The position numbers and the translations under genes were made by a program. From NCBI GenBank assembly GCA_024400505.1, contig JAKSMP010000017.1:1-45913 (forward strand): 45,913 nt of DNA, given 5' to 3'. The notes under the pieces are model-generated. The model ran no database searches and was not told the origin of the DNA. It worked only from the letters and a program-made list of their open reading frames with translations. Source of the stretch: Bacteroidales bacterium (GTDB lineage: Bacteria; Bacteroidota; Bacteroidia; Bacteroidales; P3). Positions 13,490-45,313 of the stretch are shown here, piece after piece. The number at the start of each line of letters is the position of its first letter. Position 1 is the stretch's first letter.

Positions 13490-14536
13490 TCAACCTTTCG
13501 TTCTAGTTAAGTCCTCACCCCCATCTCCCACACTTGATAGTTCTCCTTCCATCCCACACCACGGACATTTGCAATGAGCATCTTCTCCAACGCAAAAGAT
13601 ATTTCCACATTCGCATATCACCAAGCCGAGCTGATTACCACAACAAGGACAAGTCGGCTGACCTATCAATTCGGTTGTATTAATCTTAGGTTGTTGGCCA
13701 CCCACTTCAGATAGTTCGGTATAGGATTCTTCATCAATAGGATACGCACCCACTAATTTGTAATAGGAGACTAGTTGTTCGGGTATCATCTCCGAATTGC
13801 CCAGCCTCTTAGCGTATTTTATCAAGTAGGGCTTGTTTGTTGTCTGACATTTGCCCATCAATACAACAAAATTCTCATCCACAACACAGGGTTTGTTGGT
13901 GTCAACTTTTTCAAGATTAATACCATTGACTGGTGCTAATTTCACATCATCATCGCCCATATCAGTGACTGATACACTTGAAGTCTTAATTGATGCAGTA
14001 ACCCACTTAAAAAATGATTTGAAAGATTCTGGCGTAGTATCGTTCAGTCGCAACACATTGTCGGATACTTGACCAAGCAGATTAGTGTTAACGTTATCAC
14101 CCAATGAAACAATAATAAGATTGCACCCTTTTCTGTATTTAGCGTTCCAACGGGCAAAAGCCTTTTGAGTGTCATCTGTGGGATTGCCATCTGTGAAAAG
14201 AAAAATTATCGGTTTCCAATCGCCTTTTTCTTCCACAGTGGTTTTTTGCACAGAATGATCCATATCATCCATCAGAAACTCCAAAGCATTGCCCAATGAG
14301 GTGCCACCACCGATAGGGAACTTCGGGGGATAAAACTTATATAGTTCCGTCAAAGGTGTTAATACTTTAGCTTTGCCTGCAAATGCTATGACGGAGACGA
14401 AGGCTGTCTCTAATGCATAAGGATCCATCCTAAGCTCATTGATGATACTAGCCATACCATCTTGAACTTGCTCAATCGGAGTGCCAATCATAGACTCCGA
14501 TACATCAACTAAAAAGAAAATGGGTAATCTTCTCAT
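13490..14536 (-). CDS. terY: TerY-type vWA protein with C-terminal zinc ribbon
   Basis: A 348-residue protein. Residues 5-205 are a von Willebrand factor A domain. Its MIDAS motif is altered: DVSESM (11-16) replaces the usual DxSGS, while TDGNPTDD is intact. A linker domain follows, and residues about 291-329 carry a double-knuckle zinc ribbon (CPCCG, CECG, CKCPWCG), the TerY-C module. TerY proteins are the adaptor members of Ter kinase-phosphatase triads. The gene lies 11 bp after another TerY gene and just upstream of the phosphatase gene. Of the three TerY paralogues here, this is the only one with the zinc ribbon. Confidence 0.9.
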   Translation of the reverse strand: MRRLPIFFLVDVSESMIGTPIEQVQDGMASIINELRMDPYALETAFVSVIAFAGKAKVLTPLTELYKFYPPKFPIGGGTSLGNALEFLMDDMDHSVQKTTVEEKGDWKPIIFLFTDGNPTDDTQKAFARWNAKYRKGCNLIIVSLGDNVNTNLLGQVSDNVLRLNDTTPESFKSFFKWVTASIKTSSVSVTDMGDDDVKLAPVNGINLEKVDTNKPCVVDENFVVLMGKCQTTNKPYLIKYAKRLGNSEMIPEQLVSYYKLVGAYPIDEESYTELSEVGGQQPKINTTELIGQPTCPCCGNQLGLVICECGNIFCVGEDAHCKCPWCGMEGELSSVGDGGEDLTRTKG

Positions 14537-14547
14537 GATAATAAGTG

Positions 14548-15186
14548 TTAGACAATTACATTAACCTCATCTGGTGGTGGAGGCAATTCGATATCATTAG
14601 TTGCTCCAATACTCTTGTTGCCAATTTCGATAGTGTTTGAAACCCATTGGAAAAACTTTCTAAAAGAAGCACTATCCATGGTGTCCAAAGTGAATACTTG
14701 ATCGGTAAGTTGTTTTAGTGGGTCGGTCTTTGCATGCATACCTGCAGCACAGGCCACAATAGTCGCAAAATGGCGTTTTTTTACCTCGGATATAACCTGG
14801 TTATACACTTGGATGTCTGATGGTTTTCCATCAGTTAGAAGGAATAGCAATGGCATCCAATCCCCTTTGCGCTCGGGCGTACTCAATCGTACTTCTGAGT
14901 CAACTTGTTTGCATAAGAGTTCCAATGCTGCACCAGTATGAGTCGGGCCCGACTCGGGTACTACAATAGTGGGCAGCTGGAAATCTTCCAAAGGCGTAAG
15001 AGGCATCAAAACTTTAACTTCGCGGTCATAGGTTATGATGCTGATGTTGACAGATTCCAATGCATAAGGTTCAGACCGAAGGCTGGAAAGCATTGCTTCT
15101 ATTCCAACTTTTACCGACTCTATCGGTTCTCCTTTCATGGATCCCGATGTGTCAATTAGTATATATACAGGTAATCTTCTTGACAT
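14548..15186 (-). CDS. terY: TerY-type vWA protein, short form
   Basis: A 212-residue von Willebrand A domain protein, probably cytoplasmic. MIDAS residues are intact (DTSGSM at 12-17, a Thr in GPTHTG, and TDGKPSD). It ends in a proline-rich tail (ELPPPPDEVNVIV) almost the same as that of the upstream paralogue, which points to a tandem duplication. It probably binds a Mg-dependent partner within the Ter complex; the partner is unknown. It starts 9 bp after the small 53-codon gene. Confidence 0.9.
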   Translation of the reverse strand: MSRRLPVYILIDTSGSMKGEPIESVKVGIEAMLSSLRSEPYALESVNISIITYDREVKVLMPLTPLEDFQLPTIVVPESGPTHTGAALELLCKQVDSEVRLSTPERKGDWMPLLFLLTDGKPSDIQVYNQVISEVKKRHFATIVACAAGMHAKTDPLKQLTDQVFTLDTMDSASFRKFFQWVSNTIEIGNKSIGATNDIELPPPPDEVNVIV

Positions 15187-15195
15187 AATTGGATG

Positions 15196-15357
15196 TTATC
15201 TCTTGTTTCCGAATAAAAAGGCTAGAATTATCGCGCCAAGCTTTCTTTCTAGACCCTGTTTCGAAGTAGGGATACCCGTCTGCCGAGCAAATTGTTGCTT
15301 GGCAGACGTAATTCCCAATAATCGTTTCCAAGAAAACGAAAAACCATATTTCCCCAT
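15196..15357 (-). CDS. Small basic 53-residue protein, coupled to TerY
   Basis: A short ORF fills what otherwise looks like a 170-bp gap in the Ter operon. Its ATG overlaps the stop of the upstream terY as TGATG, a classic coupling arrangement, and its TAA is 9 bp before the next terY start. The protein starts MGKYGFSFSWKRLLG, continues ITSAKQQFARQTGIPTSKQG, and ends in a hydrophobic stretch followed by GNKR. It is strongly basic. The SWKRxLGI..AK....R..GIP pattern reminds me of short basic proteins in phage and plasmid genomes, but I can give no family name or function. An inverted repeat at 15278-15307 falls within the coding sequence. Confidence 0.75.
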   Translation of the reverse strand: MGKYGFSFSWKRLLGITSAKQQFARQTGIPTSKQGLERKLGAIILAFLFGNKR

Positions 15358-15995
15358 CAGACAACAATGTTCACTTCAGGAGGAGGTGGTGGTAATTCAC
15401 TAAGACCAGTGACTTCAACACCAGCATCTTCAACCTTCTGGCTTCCTGTGCTGACAGATGCTGACACCCATTTGAAGAAAGCTTTGATGGTTGCGCTATC
15501 TGCTGTATCCAACTGAACAACGCATTCGGTAATCTTTTTCAATGTGTCGGTGTTAGCACCTTGACCAGCGGCACAAGCCACCACCATGCCGAATTTACGT
15601 TTTTTAAACTCGGCCAAGCCACGATTCAGGTCATCGGTAGGTTCGCCGTCGGTCATAATGAACACCAATGGCTTCCAGTCGCCTTTCACCTCAGCGGTGG
15701 TTTTGGTCACTTCTGTGTCAACCTTCTGAGCTAATAACGATAAAGCTTCGCCCATGGCGGTGCAACCGCTGGCATCAATTGTCGGCTTCTGAAATGCCGA
15801 GAGTTCTGTCAAAGGTGTGACTTGCTGAGCAGAAGAATTGAAAGTGATAATGCTCAGATATGCTGTCTCAAGAGCATAAGGATCAGAGCGTAGTGTGGAC
15901 ACAAGCACATCAACGCCATTATTGACAGCCTGAATAGGCTCTCCGAACATACTGCCGGAGGTGTCCAATAAAAGATAAACAGGTAATCTTCTCAT
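15357..15995 (-). CDS. terY: TerY-type vWA protein, short form
   Basis: A 212-residue von Willebrand A domain with intact MIDAS residues: DTSGSM (11-16), Thr79 in GCTAMG, and TDGEPTDD (115-122). It ends in ELPPPPPEVNIVV. It is closely similar along its length to the protein at 14548-15186, so the pair looks like a duplication separated by the small gene. It starts 2 bp after the last TerD-family gene. In Ter systems such vWA proteins are proposed to act as scaffolds that connect TerD proteins with the kinase and phosphatase. Confidence 0.92.
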   Translation of the reverse strand: MRRLPVYLLLDTSGSMFGEPIQAVNNGVDVLVSTLRSDPYALETAYLSIITFNSSAQQVTPLTELSAFQKPTIDASGCTAMGEALSLLAQKVDTEVTKTTAEVKGDWKPLVFIMTDGEPTDDLNRGLAEFKKRKFGMVVACAAGQGANTDTLKKITECVVQLDTADSATIKAFFKWVSASVSTGSQKVEDAGVEVTGLSELPPPPPEVNIVV

Positions 15996-15997
15996 AA

Positions 15998-16723
15998 TTA
16001 TTTTGAATATTGTTTAAGAATGCGTTTAATTGTAAGACTTAAGTTTGAGTTTGGTAGGCGGCCATCTGCATCATCGTAAGCATCACCAATAGCGCCAAAC
16101 TTCCATTCGCCATTATGACGATATAATCGGCCCAGCACTAACGAATTTTTTCCAGAGAATTGGTTGTCTTTAGCTACGTCATACTGAGCAAAGACTTCTT
16201 TCACTTTCTTTATGTCAACTTGTGTTCCTTCATATTCACACATACGGATAGCAGCATAAGGAATCTGTAGAAAATCGATGCCTTTGGGCGAGAAAATATT
16301 CAAGAAAAAGACAATTTGGTCAATTCTGTTGCTTACTTTAGCAAGGTCAATTGTAATAATCTCATTGTCAAGTCCATCATCACCACCTTTATCACCCTCA
16401 GTATCATCAGGTGTATGATACATAGCTTTATCAGAAGACCAATCACTACCTTTGGCTAGGCCAGGAATGTTATTCGCAAAATTGCGAGGATAGATATTTG
16501 CGTTATACAAAGGTGAATACAAGGCATCGACCAAAACGCCTTGAGCATCAAGCATTACACAACTCAGGTCTACATCAACATCCACTTCCTCTGTTCTCAT
16601 ACCGAAAAGACCAGTCTTTCTTTCAATTGCACCCCAATTACATCCTACGAGGAATTTTGTCAATTTTGAGCCATCATTCTTTTCAAGATTGATGCGCTGT
16701 CCTTTTTCTAAGTTAATAGCCAT
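15998..16723 (-). CDS. TerD-family calcium-binding stress protein (divergent)
   Basis: A 241-residue TerD-domain protein, cytoplasmic. It begins MAINLEKGQRINLEK as most family members do. The calcium-site stretch reads VDVDVDLSCVML (about 46-57) instead of FDLDASAF, followed by an acidic insertion with DDTEGDKGGDDGLDNE. The C-terminal half keeps LGRLYRHNGEWKFGAIGDAY. It is one of four TerD-like paralogues encoded in a row. The acidic Ca-binding residues are partly changed, so metal binding is likely but not certain. It is encoded 29 bp after the TerA-like gene and 2 bp before the first TerY gene. Confidence 0.88.
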   Translation of the reverse strand: MAINLEKGQRINLEKNDGSKLTKFLVGCNWGAIERKTGLFGMRTEEVDVDVDLSCVMLDAQGVLVDALYSPLYNANIYPRNFANNIPGLAKGSDWSSDKAMYHTPDDTEGDKGGDDGLDNEIITIDLAKVSNRIDQIVFFLNIFSPKGIDFLQIPYAAIRMCEYEGTQVDIKKVKEVFAQYDVAKDNQFSGKNSLVLGRLYRHNGEWKFGAIGDAYDDADGRLPNSNLSLTIKRILKQYSK

Positions 16724-16752
16724 AATATTTTGATTTAGTTAAAATTCGTGTT

Positions 16753-17385
16753 CTATTTTGTTCCGTCACGGTATGAGAATCCCCAACCATACACTTTGTC
16801 ACAATCTTCATGTCCATTGTGGAAAGTAACAAGCTTACGAACTGTTATGGTATTATCGCCACCAAAATTCAATTCGGCAATGGCACAGAATCTTCTTGAG
16901 TCCGTTTGTTTACCCATTTCTACAATAACATCATCATTGCCAGGAACGCTCACTTTCACCACAGCGTTTGTATCTGCCCATTTTGCTGCACCCTCATAAA
17001 TGAATGTATAAACGATGATGCGTTTGATGTCATTGATATGATTGGGGTTCACCAAGATAGTTTCACCAGATTCGCTTGAGCCGCCACGGTCATCACCTTT
17101 ATGCCAAATATAAGGTTCTAGGTCATAACAACCTTGGCGAGTTTGCTTATTTCGTGGACCACCTTGATTGTGAGCGAACTGCAGTCCATCTATCAACTGC
17201 TTTTTGCCATTACGTAATTCATAGAAGCAACCTAGGTCAAGGTCAACCTCACTACCGAAAATCTTTTTCAGCAAACTACCTTTCGACCAATCAAGATTGA
17301 TTTTGATTTCACCCTGGAATGACGAAGATCCTTTTTCAAGGTTGATTCTATGTTGGTCTCCTGATTTTTCTAATCGTATTGCCAT
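16753..17385 (-). CDS. TerA/TerD-like protein
   Basis: A 210-residue protein of the TerD superfamily, closest in pattern to TerA C-terminal domains: EVDLDLGCFYEL, then GGPR, and the strongly conserved GDDRGG near residue 97. The N-terminus (MAIRLEKSGDQHRINLEKG) contains the family leader twice. The acidic residues of the calcium site are present. It is encoded 2 bp after the second TerD gene. The role is inferred from the family: Ter proteins give resistance to tellurite, colicins and phage, probably through calcium-dependent assemblies near the membrane. Which of these applies here cannot be told from sequence. Confidence 0.85.
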   Translation of the reverse strand: MAIRLEKSGDQHRINLEKGSSSFQGEIKINLDWSKGSLLKKIFGSEVDLDLGCFYELRNGKKQLIDGLQFAHNQGGPRNKQTRQGCYDLEPYIWHKGDDRGGSSESGETILVNPNHINDIKRIIVYTFIYEGAAKWADTNAVVKVSVPGNDDVIVEMGKQTDSRRFCAIAELNFGGDNTITVRKLVTFHNGHEDCDKVYGWGFSYRDGTK

Positions 17386-17387
17386 GA

Positions 17388-18092
17388 TTATTGATATTTT
17401 GAAACTAATTCTTCAAGACCACCTTTATGGCCAATGCCCAAAGCTTGAATTTTCCAACCTCCATCCTTGCGGTAAAGGCGGCAGAATTCGACAGATGCAC
17501 AAGCAGAAAAATCCTCAGTCAAGTCATAAATATACTCTCCTTCTCCCTCAGCTTGTCCAGGTTTATAGAGACGGACATATGCACGCTCTACTTGTCCAAA
17601 GTTTTGGCGACGATTAATATAATCATAAATACTAACTGTAATTACGATTTCTTTGACACGAGGATCAACCTTATTGAGATTGATATCCATGGTTTCATCG
17701 TCACCATCTTCAGATGTTAGACCATCCATATCGTCAATTGATCCAATCACAGACCATTCTGGCGATATGGGGCGTGTTTTCTCTCGCCAATGCATCTCTG
17801 ATGTATGATAGTCACCATTCTCGTCGGTGTATGCTGGATACTTGGTTTCATCTGGATGCTGAGGCACATCTAGTCTTTCTGGTGCCACACGGTATGGGTC
17901 TTCGCTATTATAAAAAACAAGAAAATTGTCGTTTATCAATTTTTTGTTTTCGTTAATCATGAATGCAGAAACATCCAAGTCAAAGTCAAACTGAGATACA
18001 CCTTCATTGACATCCCAACCAAGTCCGACGTGGAAGACATCAAAATCTTGATCCAGCTTGGCATTTTGACCTTTTACTAGATTGATTGCCAT
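17388..18092 (-). CDS. TerD-family protein with insertion
   Basis: A 234-residue TerD-domain protein. The core motifs are intact: GLGWDVNEG, FDFDLDVSAFM (about 34-44), DGDDETMDINL and FCRLYRKDGGWK. Compared with its neighbour at 18095 it has an extra segment of about 45 residues (about 70-115, rich in Pro, Tyr, Glu and Trp) just before the GDDE motif. Its gene starts 2 bp after the stop of the upstream TerD gene, so translation is probably coupled. Confidence 0.92.
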   Translation of the reverse strand: MAINLVKGQNAKLDQDFDVFHVGLGWDVNEGVSQFDFDLDVSAFMINENKKLINDNFLVFYNSEDPYRVAPERLDVPQHPDETKYPAYTDENGDYHTSEMHWREKTRPISPEWSVIGSIDDMDGLTSEDGDDETMDINLNKVDPRVKEIVITVSIYDYINRRQNFGQVERAYVRLYKPGQAEGEGEYIYDLTEDFSACASVEFCRLYRKDGGWKIQALGIGHKGGLEELVSKYQ

Positions 18093-18094
18093 AA

Positions 18095-18652
18095 TTATCC
18101 AACATATTTGTCAACAAAATATTGCAATCCACCTTTGTAGCCAATACCCATTGCTTCAAATTTCCATTCGCCATTTCTGCGATACAAGCGACCGAACTCA
18201 ACAGCTGTCTCAACGGAAAAGTCCTCATCAAGATCATACTTGGCGATTTCCTCATTGGTTTGGGCATTGTAAATGCGAATGTATGAGTTCCGTACTTGGC
18301 CAAAGTTTTGGCGTCTTTCTTCAAACTTATGAATGGTTACGCAAAATACAATCTCTTGGATTTTAGGGTCAACCTTTGTTAGGTCAACCATGATGGTTTC
18401 GTCATCGCCACCATCACTATTGCCGCCAGTAGTATCGTCATCGCCTGCTTCAACAGCTTTGTCAGGTGATAATTTATTATTATAGAAAACGAAATATTCG
18501 TCTTGTGGGAGTTTTTTGTTTTCACCAAGCATGAATGCGGAAGCATCCAAGTCAAAATCAAAACCTGTGCCCTCATTGGGATCCCAACCTAATCCAACGC
18601 CGACTTTCTGCAAGCCTATTTCAATGCGTTGGCCTTTCTCAAGATTAATCAT
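18095..18652 (-). CDS. terD: TerD-family calcium-binding stress protein
   Basis: A 185-residue classical TerD protein, first gene of the Ter operon. It has GLGWDPNEG, FDFDLDASAFM (the Ca2+-binding acidic cluster), GGDDETIMVDL and FGRLYRRNGEWKFEAMG. I chose the ATG at 18652 (MINLEKGQRIE), because the other three paralogues start in the same way and the longer reading begins with TTG and adds 12 unrelated residues. It is preceded by a leader of about 320 nt with extensive inverted repeats. Confidence 0.93.
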   Translation of the reverse strand: MINLEKGQRIEIGLQKVGVGLGWDPNEGTGFDFDLDASAFMLGENKKLPQDEYFVFYNNKLSPDKAVEAGDDDTTGGNSDGGDDETIMVDLTKVDPKIQEIVFCVTIHKFEERRQNFGQVRNSYIRIYNAQTNEEIAKYDLDEDFSVETAVEFGRLYRRNGEWKFEAMGIGYKGGLQYFVDKYVG

Positions 18653-18699
18653 AATTATTGTTGTTTGACAGTTAGTAGTTATTCTCAACGATTTCTATG

Positions 18700-20292: not shown

Positions 20293-22680
20293 TTAGTTTG
20301 CTTTGGTTTGCGTAGAGAACTTGCGATATGAGCCGTGCGACAACCTCTCGATAACCCCTTTTTTGAAGAGGATTCCTATCAAGTTGTCCACTCTTTTGGG
20401 TGAATTGGAGTGGTTTTGGCCTATGGTTTGATAGGTTGGGCGGTCGAACTGCTGGGGGAGTGCCTGGTAGAAGGCGGCCTCTTGGGGGGTGAGGTTCATG
20501 AGGTGGGCATCCGAGGGGGCGGCTTTGAGGATGTAGTCGGCATAGACATGGGCTGCATGGTTCATCAGCACGTCGATGATGGCCATGGCGGCTTGGAAGT
20601 CGTCGTCGGTGCATTCCAGTGTTCGGGGCAGCTGCTGGCAGTTTTCTAGGCGGGTGACGGAGAGTATCATCATGATGCGGAAGGCGCTCAACCCCAGGCG
20701 GCGGATGGTGGCCACGATGTCGTCGCCCAGCATCTGGAAGAAGTCGGTCTGCTCCTGGCTGAAATATTGGTTGAACTGCTTTTGTTGCTGCTTGGTGAGG
20801 GTGAATATGATGGGCTCATGGAGTGCTTGCAGACGGTGGTGGAGTGCGTGCACTCTTTTGCCCAGTGCGGCCATCACTTCGTCGAGGGTTTGCTCTTGGT
20901 CGGCAAACACGTCGTGCCACTCTAGGTTGCGGGGTATGCGCAGGAAGAGGAATCGGCTGAAGAGGCCGTTGTCCACAGAGGTGAATATGCGGCTGAGCTG
21001 GTCGGGGGTGCTGGTGATGAACACCGACCACTTGGGCTGCTTGATATAGACGTGTTCGTTCTCCTTGCGGCGGTTGTATTTGATGGGTTCGTGGTGGGCG
21101 GCGGAGCGCAATCCTTCGGAGTAGTCGCCATAGTCGCTTTTGAGCGAGTTGCCCAGTGCGTCGCCTTCGGTCTCGAAGGTGAGGCCCGAGCCGTGGTTGT
21201 CGTTCAGTGCCTGATAGGTGGCGGTGGCCGATCCGTTGGCGGGGATGGTCAGCGAGCGGTAGGGTGGCTCTTTGGGTTTGGGGGCGTCGGCGTTTTTCTT
21301 GCTGGCGACTGAGTAGAGGGTCATGTCGTGTTCCCATTGGTCGTGTTCGGCTTGGCTCTGGTTGCGAATCTCGGAGTCGATGTCTTCCACCAGTTTGGTG
21401 CAAGCCAGCAGTATGCCTTTGGAGCTGGCCGGGGGTGCCACCACATAGCCGAATATGTTGGGGAACACTTTGCGCTGGTCGTAGCGTCCCATCACGTTGC
21501 TCAGCACTGAACTGATTACCACCAGCGAGGCAAAGAGCAGCATGTCGCACTCTTGGGTGTTGCGGCCAGAGTGGGCTATGTCGGCCATGAGGGCGCTCAG
21601 CTTGGAGGCTATGCGGTCGGTGAAGGTTTTTTGTGCCCAATCTGATGCTTGGGGTGTGTCCAATTCCACCAAATCCACCAATTCCACCGACGGTGTAATT
21701 GGTGGAAAGGGTTTGAGCTGTGCGCCCGCCTGCTTGGCCAGGTGGAAGTAGGTGGCTATGGTAAGCCCCTCGCCGTGGCTTTTGAGGCAGGCGGTGTATT
21801 GCTTGTCGCAGTCGGCCTGTTGATATTTGGGGCTGAGGCGGCTCACTTGGTGGAATATGCTGCGTCCGCACTCGCCCAGGTCGTTGGCCAGGGCTTGCCC
21901 CATTTTGTACCAATTGTTGTAGTCGGGTGCGGGGTCGGCGGACAGTTTCTCCAGTTGGTTGGCAATGTCTTGGGCTTGTGCCAGCAGTTGGTTGGGGGTC
22001 TGATTCAGCAGATGGCTCATGCCATCGGGGTTGATGGGGCTTTTGGCAGCCCATTCAATGGGATTGAATGTGGGTGTGTTCATTGGTTGTTGAGATTTTG
22101 ATGTTGATGAAGATTGACTGCCGAAAGCGGCGGGGTTGAGGTAGGCTTCGGGGTCGTAGCAGAGGAAGCAGTTGCGGCTCTCATTCACGCATGAGCGGTC
22201 GGCCTCCAGCTGATAGGTTTGGCTCACATACTCTGCAATGGCATAGAACCATTGGCGGTGGCTGCACTGCTGGATGTCTATTTCCACCACCCATTTCAGC
22301 CCATTGCCGCTGGGCGACACAAACAGCAGGGCTGTGGTGAGGCAGGGGTCGGCCATCAGCTGTTGGCGCACTTGTGGCACACGGGCGTCGAGGTGGTCGA
22401 AGTCGAGGCAGATGAAGTTGGAGTGCATGATGAGTCCGTTGTCGGAGGGGGTGGCGAATGTGCCGCTGAATTTCACATAGTCCAGTTTCGAGCTCTTGAA
22501 CTCCTTGCGTGCTTTGTCGGTGGGCATGCTGCGCAGCTGTGCTGTGAGCTGGCCGTAGCGCTGGGGGTCGGTGATGAGGGCGTGGATTTGGGCAATACTC
22601 ATCTTGTGGCTTTTGCCGGGGCGGGTGACGGGATAGGGATAGAACTGGCACCCTTCATGAGTGAGTTGGTTAGTCGTCAT
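20293..22680 (-). CDS. VirE-N / PriCT / DUF3987 primase-helicase-like protein
   Basis: A 795-residue protein of the BT4734/BF3469 type found in Bacteroidales mobile regions. Residues about 30-160 match the VirE N-terminal (BT4734-like) domain (ICLDFDHLD, then VSPSGNGLKWVVEID). About 230-320 resembles a primase C-terminal domain (YNNWYKMGQALAND). About 360-720 is DUF3987, a P-loop-like ATPase region with APPASSKG as a modified Walker A. I prefer the ATG at 22680 (MTTNQL), preceded by AAGGAGG; an in-frame ATG at 22704 would add eight residues. It overlaps the end of the helix-turn-helix gene by 11 bp, so the two are one operon. The proposed role is replication or priming of a mobile element; the cellular function is unproven. 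Confidence 0.85.
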   Translation of the reverse strand: MTTNQLTHEGCQFYPYPVTRPGKSHKMSIAQIHALITDPQRYGQLTAQLRSMPTDKARKEFKSSKLDYVKFSGTFATPSDNGLIMHSNFICLDFDHLDARVPQVRQQLMADPCLTTALLFVSPSGNGLKWVVEIDIQQCSHRQWFYAIAEYVSQTYQLEADRSCVNESRNCFLCYDPEAYLNPAAFGSQSSSTSKSQQPMNTPTFNPIEWAAKSPINPDGMSHLLNQTPNQLLAQAQDIANQLEKLSADPAPDYNNWYKMGQALANDLGECGRSIFHQVSRLSPKYQQADCDKQYTACLKSHGEGLTIATYFHLAKQAGAQLKPFPPITPSVELVDLVELDTPQASDWAQKTFTDRIASKLSALMADIAHSGRNTQECDMLLFASLVVISSVLSNVMGRYDQRKVFPNIFGYVVAPPASSKGILLACTKLVEDIDSEIRNQSQAEHDQWEHDMTLYSVASKKNADAPKPKEPPYRSLTIPANGSATATYQALNDNHGSGLTFETEGDALGNSLKSDYGDYSEGLRSAAHHEPIKYNRRKENEHVYIKQPKWSVFITSTPDQLSRIFTSVDNGLFSRFLFLRIPRNLEWHDVFADQEQTLDEVMAALGKRVHALHHRLQALHEPIIFTLTKQQQKQFNQYFSQEQTDFFQMLGDDIVATIRRLGLSAFRIMMILSVTRLENCQQLPRTLECTDDDFQAAMAIIDVLMNHAAHVYADYILKAAPSDAHLMNLTPQEAAFYQALPQQFDRPTYQTIGQNHSNSPKRVDNLIGILFKKGVIERLSHGSYRKFSTQTKAN
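21674..21706. repeat. Palindrome inside the DUF3987 gene, similar to the one at 24481
   Basis: TCCACCAATTCCACCG, then A, then CGGTGTAATTGGTGGA: an imperfect inverted repeat inside the coding sequence, at the Thr-Pro-Ser-Val-Glu-Leu linker. The same core (CCACCAATTCCACC) forms the perfect palindrome between the Argonaute and 374-residue genes. Confidence 0.7.
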
Positions 22681-23071
22681 CTCTCCAACCTCCTTTCTCC
22701 ACATAGGTGGTGGTATGGGAGTCGATGCGATAGCCGTTTTCGAGCAGCCGTTCTATGTCGGCGCGCTTGTAGAAACAGCGTCCGCCGAACACGGAGTAGG
22801 GCAGCGCGCCGCACGAGCGTAGGTTTTGGAGCGTGCGCTGGCTGATGTTCAGCTTCTGCATCACGTCTTGGCCATCCACCCATTGCTCCAGCGGAGTGGG
22901 TGCGGGGGTGGCATTGGCAGTGCAGCCTTGGCAGGTCATGCACTTGCGCAGTAGTTGAGCAAAGGGTTCGTTGCTGGTGTTGGCGTAGTGGATCATCAGA
23001 TCACCCAGCATCATAGGCTCGCCATTGTTGGTGGGAGCCTGTTTTTTTGGGGTTGTGTCTTTTTTGGACAT
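22670..23071 (-). CDS. Helix-turn-helix (HTH_17/excisionase-like) DNA-binding protein
   Basis: A 133-residue protein. Residues about 64-112 form a MerR-like winged helix-turn-helix of the excisionase type (WVDGQDVMQKLNISQRTLQN, then GGRCFYKRADIERLL). The N-terminal half is polar and contains CMTCQGC, a possible metal-binding knuckle. The gene overlaps and precedes the DUF3987 gene, as in comparable Bacteroidales modules where such proteins are thought to control or accompany the primase-like gene. Three 11-bp repeats lie 120-150 bp upstream. Confidence 0.85.
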   Translation of the reverse strand: MSKKDTTPKKQAPTNNGEPMMLGDLMIHYANTSNEPFAQLLRKCMTCQGCTANATPAPTPLEQWVDGQDVMQKLNISQRTLQNLRSCGALPYSVFGGRCFYKRADIERLLENGYRIDSHTTTYVEKGGWRDDD

Positions 23072-23261: not shown

Positions 23262-23302
23262 TAAAAAAGCCTTGAAAAATGCTTTTTGCATAATTCAAGG
23301 CT
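23262..23302 (-). terminator. Intrinsic terminator of the Argonaute operon
   Basis: Arms AGCCTTGAA (23268-23276) and TTCAAGGCT (23294-23302). On the minus strand the stem runs into TTTTTTAT. It lies 40 bp after the stop of the 374-residue gene and closes the Argonaute operon. Confidence 0.85.
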
Positions 23303-23341: not shown

Positions 23342-24466
23342 CTAATGGGATGGAAAAAATTTTAAATATTCTTCCTTACACTTTCCAATGTATTTTTTGG
23401 CACTATTGTTGCGTTGTGGGTTGCCAAAATGATAATTCTTGATGGAACCAAATTCCTTGTCGAATATTTGGCCTAAGAAAGTAAAATATTCTTTAGTAGT
23501 ATATCCTTTTTGTATAGTGCATATATATTTTTGGAACTCCAAATATTGCAACATGGCAAAGATGTACCCAAGATTTTTCGTTTTCAATACTGGAGCCATC
23601 AATTTTTTAGCATTCTTTTTGTTTTTGAGTCTGGCAATCATGGGTATATCCATAAAGTCGTATGGCTTTATCATTTGCACAAAAGCTTCAAATTCGTATG
23701 GTGAACTGCTTGTGGTGGGGGCTTTGCGTTCGGTGGCGGTTGGCTGTGGTTGTGGTTGTGTCTGAGGCTGCGTTGGGACAAGATCCTCGAATCGCTTATA
23801 CTCATCCTCGGTTGGTAGGCGGTCGAATTGCTTGGATACCATGTACTCAAAATCTGTCTTGGTGAATCGGCTTTCGCTATCATAGAGGCAGTTGTAGTTG
23901 AGCATAAGGCTGATGTGTAAGTGCATCAACGCTTGCTGCACCAGCTGCTTCACATGGGGGTGCTCCAATAGGTCGCGCTTGGCTTGGTCGCAATGGTGCT
24001 GGATGCGGTTGAGTGTGTTGCTCAGTTCGGCGAGTGTGTGGTTGTTGTTGCGAAAGGCTTGATGCAATTCGTCGAAAGCCCAAAGGGTTCGGCCACACTC
24101 TAGCTCCACTATTTGCTGGTAGAACATCAGCTGTAGGGTGTTGGTTGGAGGTTGGTCGAAGATGTCGTTGATGAACATTCCTGGGCTCAAGATGGTGGCC
24201 TCATCGGGCTGGGTGTTGAGCAGTGCCAAGACTTGTGGTGCGGCTGCTATGCGGCTGATGAATCTGTTGTATTCATCCTCTACAGGCACCAGCTGCCCCA
24301 CAGCGTTGATGAGGGCTAGCTCTATCTTTAGTCGCATGGAGCTGGGGGTGATGCCTTCCAAGGCCTTGTGGGCGTGGAACAAATCGTCGGTGGGCAAAGC
24401 GGTGGAAATTAATTCGGGTCGCAGGTCGCCATTCAGTATGCTGTTGATAATGGGTAACTTAATCAT
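23342..24466 (-). CDS. Unrecognised 374-residue protein encoded after the Argonaute gene
   Basis: I do not recognise this protein. It looks cytoplasmic: no signal peptide and no membrane helices. Residues 1-225 are mostly helical (for example LRLKIELALINAVGQLVP-like and LNRIQHHCDQAKRDLLEHPH segments). Residues 231-255 are a Pro/Gln/Thr-rich linker. Residues 256-374 form a Lys-rich second domain (RLKNKKNAKKLMAPVLKTK, then YFTFLGQIFDKEFGSIKNYH). I see none of the usual Argonaute-partner motifs: no PD-(D/E)xK, SIR2, TIR or HNH signature. It is 56 bp downstream of the Argonaute gene on the same strand, shares the terminator at 23262, and is separated from the Argonaute gene only by a 34-bp palindrome. 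It is therefore the best candidate for an Argonaute partner or effector. Confidence 0.7.
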   Translation of the reverse strand: MIKLPIINSILNGDLRPELISTALPTDDLFHAHKALEGITPSSMRLKIELALINAVGQLVPVEDEYNRFISRIAAAPQVLALLNTQPDEATILSPGMFINDIFDQPPTNTLQLMFYQQIVELECGRTLWAFDELHQAFRNNNHTLAELSNTLNRIQHHCDQAKRDLLEHPHVKQLVQQALMHLHISLMLNYNCLYDSESRFTKTDFEYMVSKQFDRLPTEDEYKRFEDLVPTQPQTQPQPQPTATERKAPTTSSSPYEFEAFVQMIKPYDFMDIPMIARLKNKKNAKKLMAPVLKTKNLGYIFAMLQYLEFQKYICTIQKGYTTKEYFTFLGQIFDKEFGSIKNYHFGNPQRNNSAKKYIGKCKEEYLKFFPSH

Positions 24467-24480
24467 ACATCAAAGGAGAA

Positions 24481-24514
24481 TTCCACCAATTCCACCACGG
24501 TGGAATTGGTGGAA
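24481..24514. repeat. 34-bp perfect palindrome between Argonaute and partner genes
   Basis: TTCCACCAATTCCACC (24481-24496), AC, GGTGGAATTGGTGGAA (24499-24514): 16-bp perfect arms. On the minus strand it is not followed by a T run, so it does not look like a simple terminator. It could be an operator, an RNA processing hairpin, or a dispersed palindrome. Confidence 0.85.
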
Positions 24515-24522
24515 AAAGAGTA

Positions 24523-26622
24523 TTAAATCATCCACAAACCTTTATCTTTGAAATCATTCAACTCCTCGTTGGGACTGTTGGCCACAGCCTGGGCAAACAG
24601 TTCGGTGTAGGCAATGGTGATGGGCTTGTTTTGCGTGCTCACCGAGCGGTAGTAGAGGCGGCAAAACTGGTAGGCTTGGGTGATGATCTCGTGCTCCACT
24701 TTTGCTATGTCGTCGGTGTCGGGAGTGCTCTGGCCGGGGGTGATGGTTAGTTTGATGGGAAACAACTTTCTGCGTACCATGCTGTCGTCGGAGAACCGCT
24801 CGTTGCAATAGAGCAGATACTGCCTTGGACGCAAGTGGATGATGGTGCCGCTGAGGGGCATGAGATGCTGAGATTGCATGTCGAAGGCGATAAGGTCTTC
24901 GGAGGTGGCGTCCACCATGTTCACCACATACACGGGGCATTGCAGCTTCAATTCTTGCAAGGCGTGCTCCACTTGGGCCGATTCGCGGCGGTTCATGGTC
25001 TTGTAGTAGTGTATTATCAGGCGGTCGGGGACGGCTTTTCGGTGCCGCACAAATTCAATGATGTCTTTGGTTATGGAGTTTCGCAGCGCACCCAGGTCGT
25101 TGGCCTTGCAGCAGTCAAACTGGTAGTAGTTACCCAGAAAATCGAAATAGAAGGCACTGCCCAGATAGGTTTTCTTGTCCTTGCGGCTGGCTCCCACGCC
25201 CACTATCAGGTCTCTGCTGGTGGTTGTGTGGGCCAATCTCCAAGGAAGGCCACCTTGTTTGGCCACTATGGCTGCCGCCATGTTGTCCATCGTGTATTTG
25301 AAATTGGGATTGGTATTAATCGTGTCGAGGCATATCATCTGCGACTGGATGTCCTTCCGCAGCAGTTCTAGTTTGAGCTGGTTGTAAAAATTGTTATCTT
25401 TTTCAGTGGATGTGGATTTCTTGTGCTTGAGCAGCACAATGGCCATATACTTTTTGCCGTTCTCGAATCGGGTGCTGTTCAGCTCATCCACTATGTGGGG
25501 TAGGGGGTCGGTGGAGGTGGGGTAAGGGATACTCAGGCTTTGCTCCCAATGTGGCAGCTGGTGGGTATAGCTGAATATGTTTTTGATTCCTTTTTCATTG
25601 TCTCCTCGTATTAGTATATCTTGGAGAGCATTCTTCTTTTCATCTTCCCCTTGAGGATAGATGATGAAATAAGTATAGTCAGAAGGTGGTTTCTTATAAC
25701 AACCACCTTTTACAAACTCGTTGCGTAGGTAGAGGGTGGGGGTGCTGCTGCCCGTCGTCAGTAGCTTGGGCTCTTTGTCAATGGACATGATTTTTTGTGG
25801 ATTCACCTGTATTCGGTCGTCGGAGGAGAGGGGTGCTATGCCCAGCGCCTGGGCAAAGGTGGCTGGCTGCAGCTCTTGGTTAATAAAGGTGAGCAACGCT
25901 TGGTTTTTGGTAGCATATTTGTCGCGGTCGTAATTTCGGATGGTTTTGCAACCTATTATCTCCTCTATTTCTTTATTCACTAGGGGGTAGAGTCCTTTGT
26001 CCTGTTGCATCCAGTGACGGTCGTGCAAATGTTTGCTTTTCACCACCTCGGTGCCCACAATCACGCTGAATGATTTGTTGCCCAAATTCAACTGTGTGGC
26101 AGAGGTGGTGCTCGCCAAGGATTGGCCTAGGGGCATAATGTTCAGCTGCCACCCATCACATTGGTCGCGGTAACGTGGTGAGAGGGCGTATTTTTTGTAT
26201 ATTCTATATTCATGGTTGTTTGGTGTGGGTAGGGGGCAGAATACTTCCACCTCGCCTATGAATCCTTGTCGGCAAGGGTATCCCTTCTGGCGGAAGTACT
26301 GCACAAGCTGTCGCTGCAGCCAGGCTTTGGCAAGGCGGATGTCCATGTTAAGGTCAAAGGTGATGGTGGTTTGGGGTAGCTGGGGCAGCATGTCGGCCAC
26401 CTCTTCTTCCCAGTGGACAAAGTAGAAATCTGTCAATCCATCCAGCCTCTCTTGGTTGGCTTCCCACAGCTGGCCATCTCGCTCTTGGCCGAAGTGCACG
26501 GCATTTCGCTTCAGCCTCTTGAAGTCAGACTCGCTGAGCCCCTCAGTGCTAGTTATCACTTTTACTTGGTGTCTGGTTTCTTTGACCGTTATGCTTACGG
26601 CATTAAATAATAATCTTGTCAT
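24523..26622 (-). CDS. Long prokaryotic Argonaute, predicted catalytically inactive
   Basis: A 699-residue protein with the MID and PIWI domains of prokaryotic Argonautes, which use small guides to find nucleic-acid targets. MID (about 390-465): Tyr413, Lys417, Gln426/428 and Lys455 lie where guide 5'-phosphate-binding residues are expected, followed by the typical KQGGLPWRL (455-463). PIWI (about 470-699): VGVGAS (474-479) has Gly477 where catalytic enzymes have Asp; IIHYYK (536-541) replaces HRDG-like sequence with Asp; and ITIAY (668-672) has Ala instead of the last His/Asp. Target cleavage is therefore unlikely. The N-terminal 390 residues are too long for a short Argonaute and should hold N and PAZ-like parts, though I cannot delimit them. 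It starts a two-gene operon with its own promoter (26660-26690). Confidence 0.85.
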   Translation of the reverse strand: MTRLLFNAVSITVKETRHQVKVITSTEGLSESDFKRLKRNAVHFGQERDGQLWEANQERLDGLTDFYFVHWEEEVADMLPQLPQTTITFDLNMDIRLAKAWLQRQLVQYFRQKGYPCRQGFIGEVEVFCPLPTPNNHEYRIYKKYALSPRYRDQCDGWQLNIMPLGQSLASTTSATQLNLGNKSFSVIVGTEVVKSKHLHDRHWMQQDKGLYPLVNKEIEEIIGCKTIRNYDRDKYATKNQALLTFINQELQPATFAQALGIAPLSSDDRIQVNPQKIMSIDKEPKLLTTGSSTPTLYLRNEFVKGGCYKKPPSDYTYFIIYPQGEDEKKNALQDILIRGDNEKGIKNIFSYTHQLPHWEQSLSIPYPTSTDPLPHIVDELNSTRFENGKKYMAIVLLKHKKSTSTEKDNNFYNQLKLELLRKDIQSQMICLDTINTNPNFKYTMDNMAAAIVAKQGGLPWRLAHTTTSRDLIVGVGASRKDKKTYLGSAFYFDFLGNYYQFDCCKANDLGALRNSITKDIIEFVRHRKAVPDRLIIHYYKTMNRRESAQVEHALQELKLQCPVYVVNMVDATSEDLIAFDMQSQHLMPLSGTIIHLRPRQYLLYCNERFSDDSMVRRKLFPIKLTITPGQSTPDTDDIAKVEHEIITQAYQFCRLYYRSVSTQNKPITIAYTELFAQAVANSPNEELNDFKDKGLWMI

Positions 26623-26659: not shown

Positions 26660-26690
26660 CAAAATTACACAATTTTTTTGACATAGACAA
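26660..26690 (-). promoter_or_regulatory. Promoter of the Argonaute operon
   Basis: The minus strand has TTG (26688-26690), 20 bp, then TAATTTTG (26660-26667). It fits the Bacteroidetes consensus and lies about 38 bp upstream of the start codon. Confidence 0.65.
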
Positions 26691-42950: not shown

Positions 42951-43898
42951 TTATCTCTTTTCCCTTGGTCCCATAAATCTATCACCATTCAAGTGAATCA
43001 TATGGTCAGGAATTTCTGCAATCCATACTTCTGTTTCCCATGCCAAAGAATCAGAAAATTTTTTGAAGGTTTTGAAGTCCAGAAATGCTGTCACATAAAT
43101 TATCCCGGATGTAACGTTGCCCGTCATCTGACCTATCTCAACAATTCTTTTGGAATCCATCGGTCCTACAGAAGTAACGGATTCCACGAAATATATCCAA
43201 TCCTTGTCGTCCCGATAGAGGACTACATCAGGCATTTTGTCGTGGAGGGTTATCTCGAATCCAAGATTTTTGAGTTTCTTAACGTTCTTTACAAGATTTT
43301 TTTCTGTTGTATCACCCACATAAAGGCACTCTGAATTTGGAGCAAAACGTGGCGCAAATTCCTCGATAATAGCTTTCTGTAGCTGATTGTGCTTTCCAGG
43401 GGAGAATGTAAAATCCTGATTGTTAATCTTGACTGGCATCTTCTCCATCTGCTTCTTTGAGGCATATATGTCTTTTAGACTCTGGTGATGGTTCATAAAA
43501 GATTCTATTTCAAATTCGTTGTCCTCATGGACACTCATACCATCAATTTCTTGGATAGAACGAATTACCCTCAGGAACTCGTTGGTGATCCTGTAACGGT
43601 AGTTAGGACTATTGGTTGCCTTGCCGTTGTCCTCAATGATAGCAGCTGTGCGGAAATGGTGCATAGCTTTTTTTCGAAATGTTTCACGGCTATTTTCAGC
43701 GTAAGTAATACCGTATTCCTTATCAATGAAGTCTATTACATCATGGATTCGTATCCATTCGTTAGTTGCTTCTTCGAAACTTGTTTCCTTCTTGATGTTT
43801 GCCATGGCAAGCAATGTCAGACAGCATATTGCTGACTGTTGCTGTTGAGGCATCCCTATTCGTTCCAATAAATATTTGACGGTTTCTAATTTATCCAT
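42951..43898 (-). CDS. BsuBI/PstI-family type II restriction endonuclease
   Basis: A 315-residue endonuclease of the BsuBI/PstI family, whose known members cut CTGCAG. An N-terminal helical domain (1-140, with a winged-helix-like part, FIDKEYGITYAENSRETFRK) precedes the catalytic half: CLYVGDTTEKN, then MPDVVLYRDDKDWIYFVESV, the PD-(D/E)xK-type core with Asp and Glu. MTGNVTSGIIYVTAF and KTFKKF complete the family pattern. Its start lies 13 bp inside the end of the methyltransferase gene, so the methyltransferase is made first. Target CTGCAG is inferred from the family only. Confidence 0.9.
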   Translation of the reverse strand: MDKLETVKYLLERIGMPQQQQSAICCLTLLAMANIKKETSFEEATNEWIRIHDVIDFIDKEYGITYAENSRETFRKKAMHHFRTAAIIEDNGKATNSPNYRYRITNEFLRVIRSIQEIDGMSVHEDNEFEIESFMNHHQSLKDIYASKKQMEKMPVKINNQDFTFSPGKHNQLQKAIIEEFAPRFAPNSECLYVGDTTEKNLVKNVKKLKNLGFEITLHDKMPDVVLYRDDKDWIYFVESVTSVGPMDSKRIVEIGQMTGNVTSGIIYVTAFLDFKTFKKFSDSLAWETEVWIAEIPDHMIHLNGDRFMGPREKR

Positions 43899-45313
43899 TG
43901 CTCTATGATTGTGTTACAATTATGTTCGGTCAGTTCTTGTCCCATGAGTTGATTACCCATGTCAATGATAGTATCTGTATCAGGAACCGGCATGTTATTT
44001 ATTTCTGTTGAGTTTACCTGTGTGGATCCATTCAAGATACGGTAGTACGTATCATAGATGGTTGAGTTAAATAGAACATACAGACCATAGGCGAGTTCTG
44101 GAGTCTCGCATTTGATATAGTTTACTTTGTTCTGTGTACTGATGTGGGCATACTCTGGATGGTCCGACTGCAGATATATACCACACTGAAGCCGTCTTCT
44201 CTCCTCTTTTGCTGTGAAACGCTTTACGAGGAGATAATTTGTATTTTCTTGCAAGAATCCTGATCGATTGGTTGATATATATTCATACTCCTTTCCTACA
44301 GGCCATTCCACCCTACCATTGCGGATGTGTTGACTGTAGAATAATGGAAAGGTCTTTTCGGATGGTTTATCACGAAGGACATCTCTTGTTCTGAAATCGA
44401 CAATAATTCCTGTCTTCATTGGATGATTAATGGAAGTTAGTGTTTCGTTCAAGTGTGACAGTTTGTTAAGAATTGTAGATTCTTGTTCATCCGTCACTAG
44501 AAATATATACTGATTGCTTGCAACGACAACATTATAAGGGGCTTGAAACTCTCGTATATCAGTAAATTCAGATGTTGAAGAGGACGTTATTCTTACTGTT
44601 TCTGGATGCTCTGTTGTTTTCTTTATTTTAACTATAATGGTTTCTTGAAGAACACTTTCGCTGCCAAATACCTTGTCTCTGCTTGAAAAAAGGTGAATGT
44701 GGGCTATGATACAATTAGAAAATAAGTATTCACGGAATTTGGCAAAGTACGCCCCAGATGTCCATGATCTCGGAATGATATATACAAGTTCCTGGTTCTC
44801 TTTCAATGTTTCAATAGCTTTTGCCCAGAACAGGAAGTAAAGATTTGGCGTACCATGACAAACGTGGGGAAATGCTTTCGCCTCTGCATCATCCTTGCCA
44901 ATCTTCTTGTATGGAGGATTGCCAATAATGTAATCAAATTCATCCTCTCTCGATGTAGTTGTAAGATAATTGTCAGTTTTAATCTCAAAATCAAGATTTC
45001 GACCCTTTCTTATCTCTGTCAGGTTTTGCAGAAGTATTGGCAGCACCTTTTTGTCATTCTCATAGCATACTAGGCTTATATGGCCGTTATATCCCATATT
45101 AAGGATTCTTTCAACAATAGCAGCTGACAGCATGCCAGTACCGGCTCCTGCATCGAGAATTCTTATTACGGGCAATGCGAGATCTATAACGAAAAGATCA
45201 GCCATAAAGCGTGCTGTTAATTCAGGTGTGAAAAACTGACCATATTCTTTACGTTGAGTTTTGGGCATGGTTTCAACAAAAGACAATGTGGTTTCTGTAA
45301 CTTCTCGAAGCAT
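43886..45313 (-). CDS. BsuBI/PstI-type adenine-N6 DNA methyltransferase
   Basis: A 475-residue N6-adenine methyltransferase partner of the endonuclease. KEYGQFFTP (22-30), SAM-binding motif I LDAGAGTGMLSA (53-64), and catalytic NPPYKK (132-137) are all present. The C-terminal half (target recognition, about 230-440) includes TGIIVDFRTRDVL and SGFLQENTNYLLV, typical of M.BsuBI and related Eco57I-like enzymes. The start ATG at 45313 gives the full FFTP region. No clear TAnnTTTG promoter is visible upstream. It is the first gene of the pair, overlapping the endonuclease gene by 13 bp. Confidence 0.92.
   Translation of the reverse strand: MLREVTETTLSFVETMPKTQRKEYGQFFTPELTARFMADLFVIDLALPVIRILDAGAGTGMLSAAIVERILNMGYNGHISLVCYENDKKVLPILLQNLTEIRKGRNLDFEIKTDNYLTTTSREDEFDYIIGNPPYKKIGKDDAEAKAFPHVCHGTPNLYFLFWAKAIETLKENQELVYIIPRSWTSGAYFAKFREYLFSNCIIAHIHLFSSRDKVFGSESVLQETIIVKIKKTTEHPETVRITSSSTSEFTDIREFQAPYNVVVASNQYIFLVTDEQESTILNKLSHLNETLTSINHPMKTGIIVDFRTRDVLRDKPSEKTFPLFYSQHIRNGRVEWPVGKEYEYISTNRSGFLQENTNYLLVKRFTAKEERRRLQCGIYLQSDHPEYAHISTQNKVNYIKCETPELAYGLYVLFNSTIYDTYYRILNGSTQVNSTEINNMPVPDTDTIIDMGNQLMGQELTEHNCNTIIEQWIN

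What the first reader, a model, noticed from the sequence alone, without database searches (positions are those of the whole stretch)
23342..26622. Inactive long Argonaute in an operon with an unrecognised 374-residue protein
Seen: MID and PIWI motifs (KQGGLPWRL; VGVGAS; IIHYYK; ITIAY) in a 699-residue protein with the expected catalytic Asp, Asp and His/Asp replaced by Gly477, Tyr540 and Ala671. The probable guide 5'-phosphate-binding residues (Tyr413, Lys417, Gln, Lys455) are kept. Its own promoter drives a two-gene operon closed by a terminator at 23262. Established: inactive long Argonautes usually depend on a co-encoded effector (nuclease, SIR2 or membrane protein). Inference: the 374-residue protein is that effector or an adaptor, of a type I do not recognise, so this could be an undescribed Argonaute defence system.
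Basis: partly seen in the sequence, partly recalled or inferred. Interest (0 to 1): 0.88.

Follow-up and report, generated by a model that had tools for sequence, protein, structure and literature searches.

The report
Inactive Argonaute with undescribed helical partner
A gut-type bacterium carries a disabled gene-silencing protein (Argonaute) that, in every relative found, travels with one unrecognised partner protein, probably as a new two-part defence system against invading DNA.

Summary
Window 24523-26622(-) is a full-length, catalytically dead long-B-type Argonaute followed by a 374-residue protein (23342-24466(-)), with a promoter-like site before gene one and a terminator after gene two. 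One detail is wrong: the fourth catalytic position is Glu674, not Ala671. The pair is a real unit: all 9 distinct loci of this Argonaute clade that my searches found carry the partner directly downstream; the clade is monophyletic (100/100) with three deep lineages; Argonaute and partner distances agree (Mantel r 0.96); no full-length partner was found without it. The partner reaches no curated family cut-off; its model is all-helical, without membrane segments, so it is not the nuclease, SIR2 or membrane effector of known long-B systems. New here: its C-terminal 130 residues are shared with proteins that stand behind tyrosine integrases in Bacteroidales elements, and in one relative this domain was exchanged for one nearer the integrase type while the N-terminal domain stayed. 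The pair sits as cargo in primase-type islands whose slot elsewhere can hold restriction or CRISPR genes. Best reading: a two-gene Argonaute defence cassette whose partner is an adaptor/effector with an exchangeable C-domain, probably DNA-handling. Defence is inferred, not shown.

The parts
26660..26690 (-). Bacteroidetes-type promoter-like site (TTG-N20-TAATTTTG), starting 68 nt before the Argonaute ATG
   Evidence: 7 such sites on both strands of the window; consensus recalled, function not shown
24523..26622 (-). catalytically inactive long-B-type Argonaute, 699 aa
24481..24514 (-). perfect 15-bp hairpin in the Argonaute-partner gap; palindromic repeat seen again on contig C17; the relatives' gaps are only 10-12 bp
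   Evidence: gaps from coordinates
23342..24466 (-). partner protein, 374 aa: helical N-domain (about 1-230), disordered linker (about 233-258), helical C-domain (about 258-374)
   Evidence: no family over its cut-off
23345..23731 (-). stretch holding the partner C-domain, homologous to the C-domain of integrase-neighbour proteins
   Evidence: hhalign 98.4%, E 4.8e-15; alignment A6
23262..23302 (-). intrinsic terminator after the partner (stem-loop followed by a U-run)
   Evidence: z -6.6; sequence; not listed by the scan
22670..23071 (-). HTH_17 protein, first gene of the island core (surroundings)
   Evidence: Pfam E 8.1e-8
20293..22704 (-). BT4734(VirE)-PriCT_2-DUF3987 primase/helicase-type protein of the island core (surroundings)
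   Evidence: 37% identical over 558 aa to the same gene in the integrase element L072
19235..20065 (-). HU-HIG protein next to the island core (surroundings)

Best explanation
A two-component, Argonaute-based defence cassette of a type not described in the papers I searched. The catalytically dead long-B Argonaute binds a 5'-phosphorylated guide (pocket residues kept; guide type inferred from other long-B systems) and recognises matching invader nucleic acid. Because it cannot cut, it acts through the co-encoded helical protein: the N-domain, which stays with its Argonaute, docks on it (inferred), and the C-domain, a separable module shared with proteins that stand behind tyrosine integrases in Bacteroidales elements, acts downstream, most likely by binding or remodelling DNA or recruiting a host factor (inferred). 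The pair moves as cargo among chromosomal primase-type islands whose slot elsewhere can hold restriction-modification, CRISPR-Cas or other cassettes. Shown: the pair, its co-inheritance, Argonaute inactivity (by sequence), the modular C-domain, the island setting. Inferred: guide loading, complex formation, direction of signalling, defence.
For: 9 of 9 clade loci have the partner directly downstream, 10-12 bp away in 8 and 56 bp in the window. The clade is monophyletic (100/100), one change of the partner label on the tree versus 7.8 in shuffles. Mantel r 0.96, p 0.0003; without the window 0.94, p 0.0014. Partner profile: 0 of 19 sister-Argonaute loci (L034-L052; L039 and L041 end within about 210 bp behind the Argonaute and cannot tell), 0 of 3 further sister contigs (L077-L079, each cut at the Argonaute 5' end), 0 of 20 Argonaute-less islands (L115-L134; L127 has almost no upstream sequence). 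C-domain exchange: the L060 partner N-domain is 0.27-0.34 from five siblings, its C-domain 0.70-0.75 and nearest an integrase-neighbour protein (E 1e-13 versus 6e-8 for the best sibling). Island slot: in several of those 20 islands it holds what read as type I RM, CRISPR-Cas or C5-methylase genes (by eye). The L007 island is a discrete insertion: 12.9 kb between lpdA and dnaA where 6 of 7 relatives fetched have 0.5-0.7 kb.
Against: No direct evidence of defence, of guide binding or of a complex. The clade loci were found with profiles of pair-bearing Argonautes and by peptide patterns, so the 9 of 9 may be biased towards the pair. The partner has no recognisable catalytic or DNA-binding fold (0 PDB matches at E 0.001; 0 in BFVD), at only moderate model confidence (pLDDT 65.5). 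The clade is rare (3 of 190 family and 2 of 393 order genomes). In the window the gene order partner-HTH_17-primase matches that of an integrase element, which leaves an element-side role open. Several Argonaute-less islands show host-like genes rather than defence genes in the slot. The 15-bp hairpin may uncouple the two genes in this genome.
Confidence: 0.55

Rival explanations
1. The partner is a stand-alone toxic effector (abortive infection), as in BPAN, BPAS or BPAM, with an enzymatic or pore-forming activity not recognisable from sequence; its C-domain is the toxic part.
For: The three long-B systems studied by Song et al. have a co-encoded downstream nuclease, SIR2 or membrane protein (PMC10620215, section 6). 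Exchange of the C-domain resembles toxin-domain swapping.
Against: No nuclease, SIR2 or other enzyme family over its cut-off; no membrane segment (19-residue Kyte-Doolittle maximum 0.83-1.51 over 9 proteins); the related C-domains sit in integrase-neighbour genes, where a toxin is unexpected.
Confidence: 0.2
2. Element-side role: Argonaute with partner took the place of integrase with neighbour protein in an integrative element, and serves the element itself (guided targeting, exclusion of rival elements, or maintenance).
For: The window order Argonaute-partner-HTH_17-BT4734-PriCT_2-DUF3987 is collinear with integrase-X-HTH_17-BT4734-PriCT_2-DUF3987 in L072; partner and X share the C-domain; no Phage_integrase match on the Argonaute contig in the four genomes where that contig is known; the other genes of the L007 island carry no recognised recombinase.
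Against: At least 6 of the other 8 loci have a different core (a gene of about 435-470 aa without Pfam family, then a CHC2-type gene). Relatives of that core gene occur in 30 of 99 genus genomes, and 20 of 20 such regions fetched show no Argonaute, partner or L072-type integrase, so the pair looks like cargo. No terminal repeats of 11 bp or more at the L007 island.
Confidence: 0.15
3. The partner is a transcriptional or housekeeping protein of the island that hitch-hikes next to Argonaute without a functional link; the Argonaute is a solitary defence or regulatory protein.
For: A related C-domain occurs without Argonaute; sister Argonautes have no such partner.
Against: 9 of 9 retention across three deep lineages, parallel divergence, and absence from 20 of 20 Argonaute-less islands.
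Confidence: 0.07

Closest known systems
Long-B pAgo systems BPAN, BPAS, BPAM (Song et al. 2023, PMC10620215: section 6 read in full, other passages seen)
   Same: Full-length inactive Argonaute encoded directly upstream of one partner gene; Argonaute and partner diverge together; EcAgo (PDB 23wq) is a sequence relative (E 2.2e-11)
   Different: The partner is no recognised nuclease, SIR2 or membrane protein; it is a two-domain helical protein whose C-domain is shared with integrase-neighbour proteins
og_54 (VirE N-terminal protein) subclade of long-B pAgos in the same paper
   Same: Long-B Argonautes with a VirE-N (here BT4734-like) gene nearby; the paper leaves their function to future studies
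   Different: There the VirE-N gene usually lies 2 to 8 genes upstream; in the window it lies downstream, and the constant companion of this clade is the 374-residue protein, which the passages I saw do not mention
Integrase-neighbour proteins X of Bacteroidales elements (L072-L076; no family name found)
   Same: Homologous C-terminal 130 residues (hhalign 98.4%); in the window the same gene order towards HTH_17 and primase
   Different: Three of five follow a tyrosine integrase directly, two follow neither integrase nor Argonaute in the stretch read; no alignable N-domain apart from a short first-helix similarity
AfAgo (Archaeoglobus fulgidus)
   Same: Best PDB sequence match to MID-PIWI (E 2e-22)
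   Different: The AfAgo chain is 427 residues; ours is a single full-length protein, and its partner is not an N-L1-L2 protein (the AfAgo partner seen only in the title of PMC10954474)

Membership tests
long-B prokaryotic Argonaute | full-length Argonaute with N-terminal part plus MID and PIWI | tested here: met
long-B prokaryotic Argonaute | loss of the catalytic DEDX tetrad | tested here: met
   no Asp at positions 477 and 540; Glu674 at the fourth position
long-B prokaryotic Argonaute | PAZ domain state | tested here: inconclusive
   model too poor to delimit PAZ
long-B prokaryotic Argonaute | 5'-phosphate RNA guide and DNA target | not testable with these tools
   only pocket residues, invariant in 9 of 9
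BPAN | PD-(D/E)XK nuclease partner | tested here: not met
   no nuclease family; all-helical model of moderate confidence
BPAS | SIR2 partner | tested here: not met
BPAM | transmembrane partner | tested here: not met
   19-residue hydropathy maximum 1.51 or less in 9 of 9; no dedicated membrane predictor was run
integrase-neighbour protein X | shared C-terminal domain | tested here: met
integrase-neighbour protein X | position directly behind a tyrosine integrase | tested here: not met
   Argonaute stands there in 9 of 9; no Phage_integrase on the contig in 4 of 4 known cases
RteC (PF09357) | profile similarity to RteC | tested here: not met
   hhalign of A4, A5 and A6 against three RteC proteins: probability 0.1-0.2%; a thin RteC profile

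The most novel reading that the evidence does not exclude
Argonaute has taken over the place of the tyrosine integrase in a Bacteroidales integrative element: a neighbour protein that normally serves an integrase was refitted with a new N-domain to serve a guide-binding, non-cutting Argonaute, so that guided recognition replaces site-specific recombination in steering the element or in excluding its rivals.
Probability: 0.12. Interest if true: 0.92.

Novelty: new variant of a known kind. Interest (0 to 1): 0.66.

Why it matters
Long-B Argonautes act through co-encoded effectors, and three effector kinds have been studied. This would be a further kind and the first, as far as my searches show, whose partner shares a domain with proteins next to integrases. 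The domain exchange in one relative points to the N-domain as the Argonaute-facing part, a directly testable prediction. It also suggests that the VirE-N association reported for some long-B Argonautes may reflect the island they sit in rather than a functional partner.

Tried and rejected
RteC as the partner's family: the C-termini look alike by eye, but profile comparison gave 0.1-0.2% probability. DUF1615: 4 of 9 partners match over about 55 residues, all below the curated cut-off (best 21.1 bits against 25, E 1.9e-4), the window protein not at all; taken as chance. Argonaute as viral cargo: pattern scans of IMG/VR gave no relative for either profile, tblastn none in 50,697 phage records; plasmids gave 11 distant matches at 19-31% identity, 9 of them annotated as Piwi-domain proteins. 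A single-sequence scan of genome contigs found nothing; the alignment scan gave 8 loci. Argonaute replacing the integrase as the main reading: demoted after 20 Argonaute-less islands pointed to a cargo slot. My early label DUF3987 for the core gene of the other loci was wrong: Pfam gives no family for the L007 and L008 copies; only the window and L072 proteins carry it. Methylase motif in the Argonaute N-terminus: only about 15 residues, sub-threshold Pfam (E 0.005), lost in the window; set aside. Terminal repeats of the L007 island: none of 11 bp or more. The C-domain is rare: 5 of 247 order genomes and 1 of 345 phylum genomes, the window genome counted in both. Weak partner-profile hits in 5 further order genomes (E 3.5e-4 to 0.007) were not followed. 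A joint model of Argonaute and partner was not possible with the two structure jobs.
Full report
The observation. The first is an Argonaute: Pfam Piwi E 1.6e-12, PADLOC pAgo model PDLC02385 at 465 bits along its whole length, and a predicted model that Foldseek lays along whole Argonautes, although that model is of low confidence, above all in PIWI. The profile alignment to solved Argonautes puts Gly477 on an Asp of AaAgo, the first catalytic one by recall; Tyr540 stands in the second-Asp motif. None of 23 aligned rows shows Asp at either place (by eye). The pocket residues Tyr413, Lys417, Gln428 and Lys455 are invariant in 9 of 9 clade members.

The operon. A Bacteroidetes-type promoter-like site starts 68 nt before the Argonaute start and a strong stem-loop with a U-run follows the partner. 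In the window a perfect 15-bp hairpin lies in the 56-bp gap between the genes. The same palindrome occurs on contig C17 of the same genome, with an imperfect copy about 1.1 kb further, so it is a dispersed palindromic repeat that may have inserted here; the eight relatives have gaps of 10-12 bp.

The pair is a unit. In 190 genomes of the family the Argonaute and the partner occur in the same three genomes, next to each other. In 393 genomes of the order, 24 have an Argonaute match at E 1e-10; two of these, the window's own genome and G398, belong to the 38%-identity clade, and full-length partners occur in exactly those two. A pattern scan of the genome-contig collection (84,980 species by its description) gave eight loci of the clade, three of which are the G076, G092 and G398 loci again. 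Counting the window, 9 of 9 distinct loci have the partner directly downstream on the same strand; in L059 the Argonaute is cut at its 5' end. The scans used profiles of pair-bearing Argonautes, so a pair-less member of the clade could have been missed. On a tree of 28 Argonautes the nine form one group with 100/100 support and three deep lineages: the window alone, L055 with L057, and six others. Distances of Argonaute and partner agree (Mantel r 0.96, p 0.0003; without the window r 0.94, p 0.0014). The partner changes faster than the Argonaute (21-25% against 36-41% identity to the window).

The partner. No family reaches its cut-off: Pfam and PHROGs for all 9 members, PADLOC and NCBIfam for the window protein, PDB sequences with the profile. 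It has no membrane-like segment by hydropathy. The predicted model (pLDDT 65.5) is all-helical: an N-domain to about residue 230, a disordered linker, and a C-domain from about 258. Foldseek found nothing at E 0.001 in the PDB or BFVD.

Where the C-domain comes from. The partner profile also hit five proteins of the order by their last 130-160 residues (L062-L066, the same genes as in L072-L076). Profile-profile comparison gives 98.4% and E 4.8e-15 over 131 columns. Three of the five lie directly behind a tyrosine integrase (Pfam Phage_integrase confirmed for two, the third by similarity to them); in four, mutually similar HTH genes follow. In L060 the partner N-domain is 0.27-0.34 from five siblings while its C-domain is 0.70-0.75 away from them and closest to an integrase-neighbour protein. 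So the C-domain is exchangeable and the N-domain stays with the Argonaute. This is the main new fact, and it points to the N-domain as the Argonaute-facing part (inference).

The setting. The window pair is followed by HTH_17, a BT4734-PriCT_2-DUF3987 protein and a HU-HIG protein. That primase protein is 37% identical over 558 aa to the one in the integrase element L072, with collinear order. Six of the other eight loci (L053, L054, L056, L057, L058, L060) have another core: a gene of about 435-470 aa without Pfam family (broken into pieces in L056) and a CHC2-type gene, in five of them after a small gene of 117-196 aa; L055 shows only the small gene before its contig ends, and L059 ends just after the partner (CHC2 confirmed by Pfam for L007 only, the rest by eye). 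Relatives of that core gene are common in the genus: 30 of 99 genomes, in several copies in some. In 20 such regions fetched (16 of the short type, 4 of a longer type), none has Argonaute, partner or a relative of the L072-type integrases; in several the slot holds what read as type I restriction genes, CRISPR-Cas genes or C5 methylases, in others host-like genes (by eye). The L007 island is a discrete insertion, 12.9 kb between lpdA and dnaA where 6 of 7 relatives fetched have 0.5-0.7 kb; in the seventh lpdA was not beside dnaA. No Phage_integrase match lies on the Argonaute contig in the four genomes where that contig is known. The pair is thus best seen as a two-gene cassette within cargo-bearing islands.

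Mechanism. By analogy with BPAN, BPAS and BPAM (PMC10620215; section 6 read in full, other passages seen), an inactive guide-loaded Argonaute detects invader nucleic acid and acts through its partner. Here the partner is no recognised toxin, so an adaptor with a DNA-handling C-domain is my first choice (0.55), an unrecognised toxin the second (0.2), an element-side role the third (0.15). That paper leaves a minority of long-B Argonautes near VirE-N genes (og_54) to future work; in the window the VirE-N gene is island core, and the 374-residue gene is the constant companion.

Print status. Searches of the open-access library, judged by titles and abstract starts, listed no paper on this partner or on a long-B Argonaute of Prevotella-like bacteria; subscription papers and preprints are not in that library. 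PMC6299218 was searched for six terms and passages were seen; VirE and integrase do not occur in its main text. Supplementary tables of both papers were not seen.

Noticed in passing
L053-L058 and L060, first 45 residues of Argonaute: Five of the seven other clade Argonautes complete at the N-terminus carry VID[LI]FAG[CI]G, like motif I of C5-cytosine methylases (L055: DNA_methylase E 0.005, below cut-off); L053 and L060 have variants and the window lacks it.
   Followed up: partly
L034, L035, L037, L040, L046 (sister Argonautes): Several sister long Argonautes without the partner lie directly behind, or one gene behind, what look like type I restriction HsdR genes (by eye), which suggests a separate Argonaute-restriction link.
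   Followed up: no
L039, L042, L043, upstream of Argonaute: A conserved protein of about 500 aa that looks like a nucleotide deaminase (by eye) lies shortly before three sister Argonautes.
   Followed up: no
L051 and L052: SIR2-like genes directly behind more distant Argonautes (by eye), fitting the BPAS type.
   Followed up: no
window 13490-18688: Ter-type operon beside the island: four proteins with TerD matches (one below cut-off) and two VWA/TerY proteins.
   Followed up: no
window 42951-45313: BsuBI/PstI-type restriction endonuclease with a neighbouring gene that may be its methylase (not scanned).
   Followed up: no
L131: Cas1/Cas2-like genes and a CRISPR-like repeat array (by eye) sit in the same slot before a longer relative of the island core gene.
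   Followed up: no
G000:C17:14550-14579 and about 15697-15718: One full and one imperfect further copy of the TTCCACCAATTCCACC palindrome: a small dispersed palindromic repeat of this genome.
   Followed up: partly
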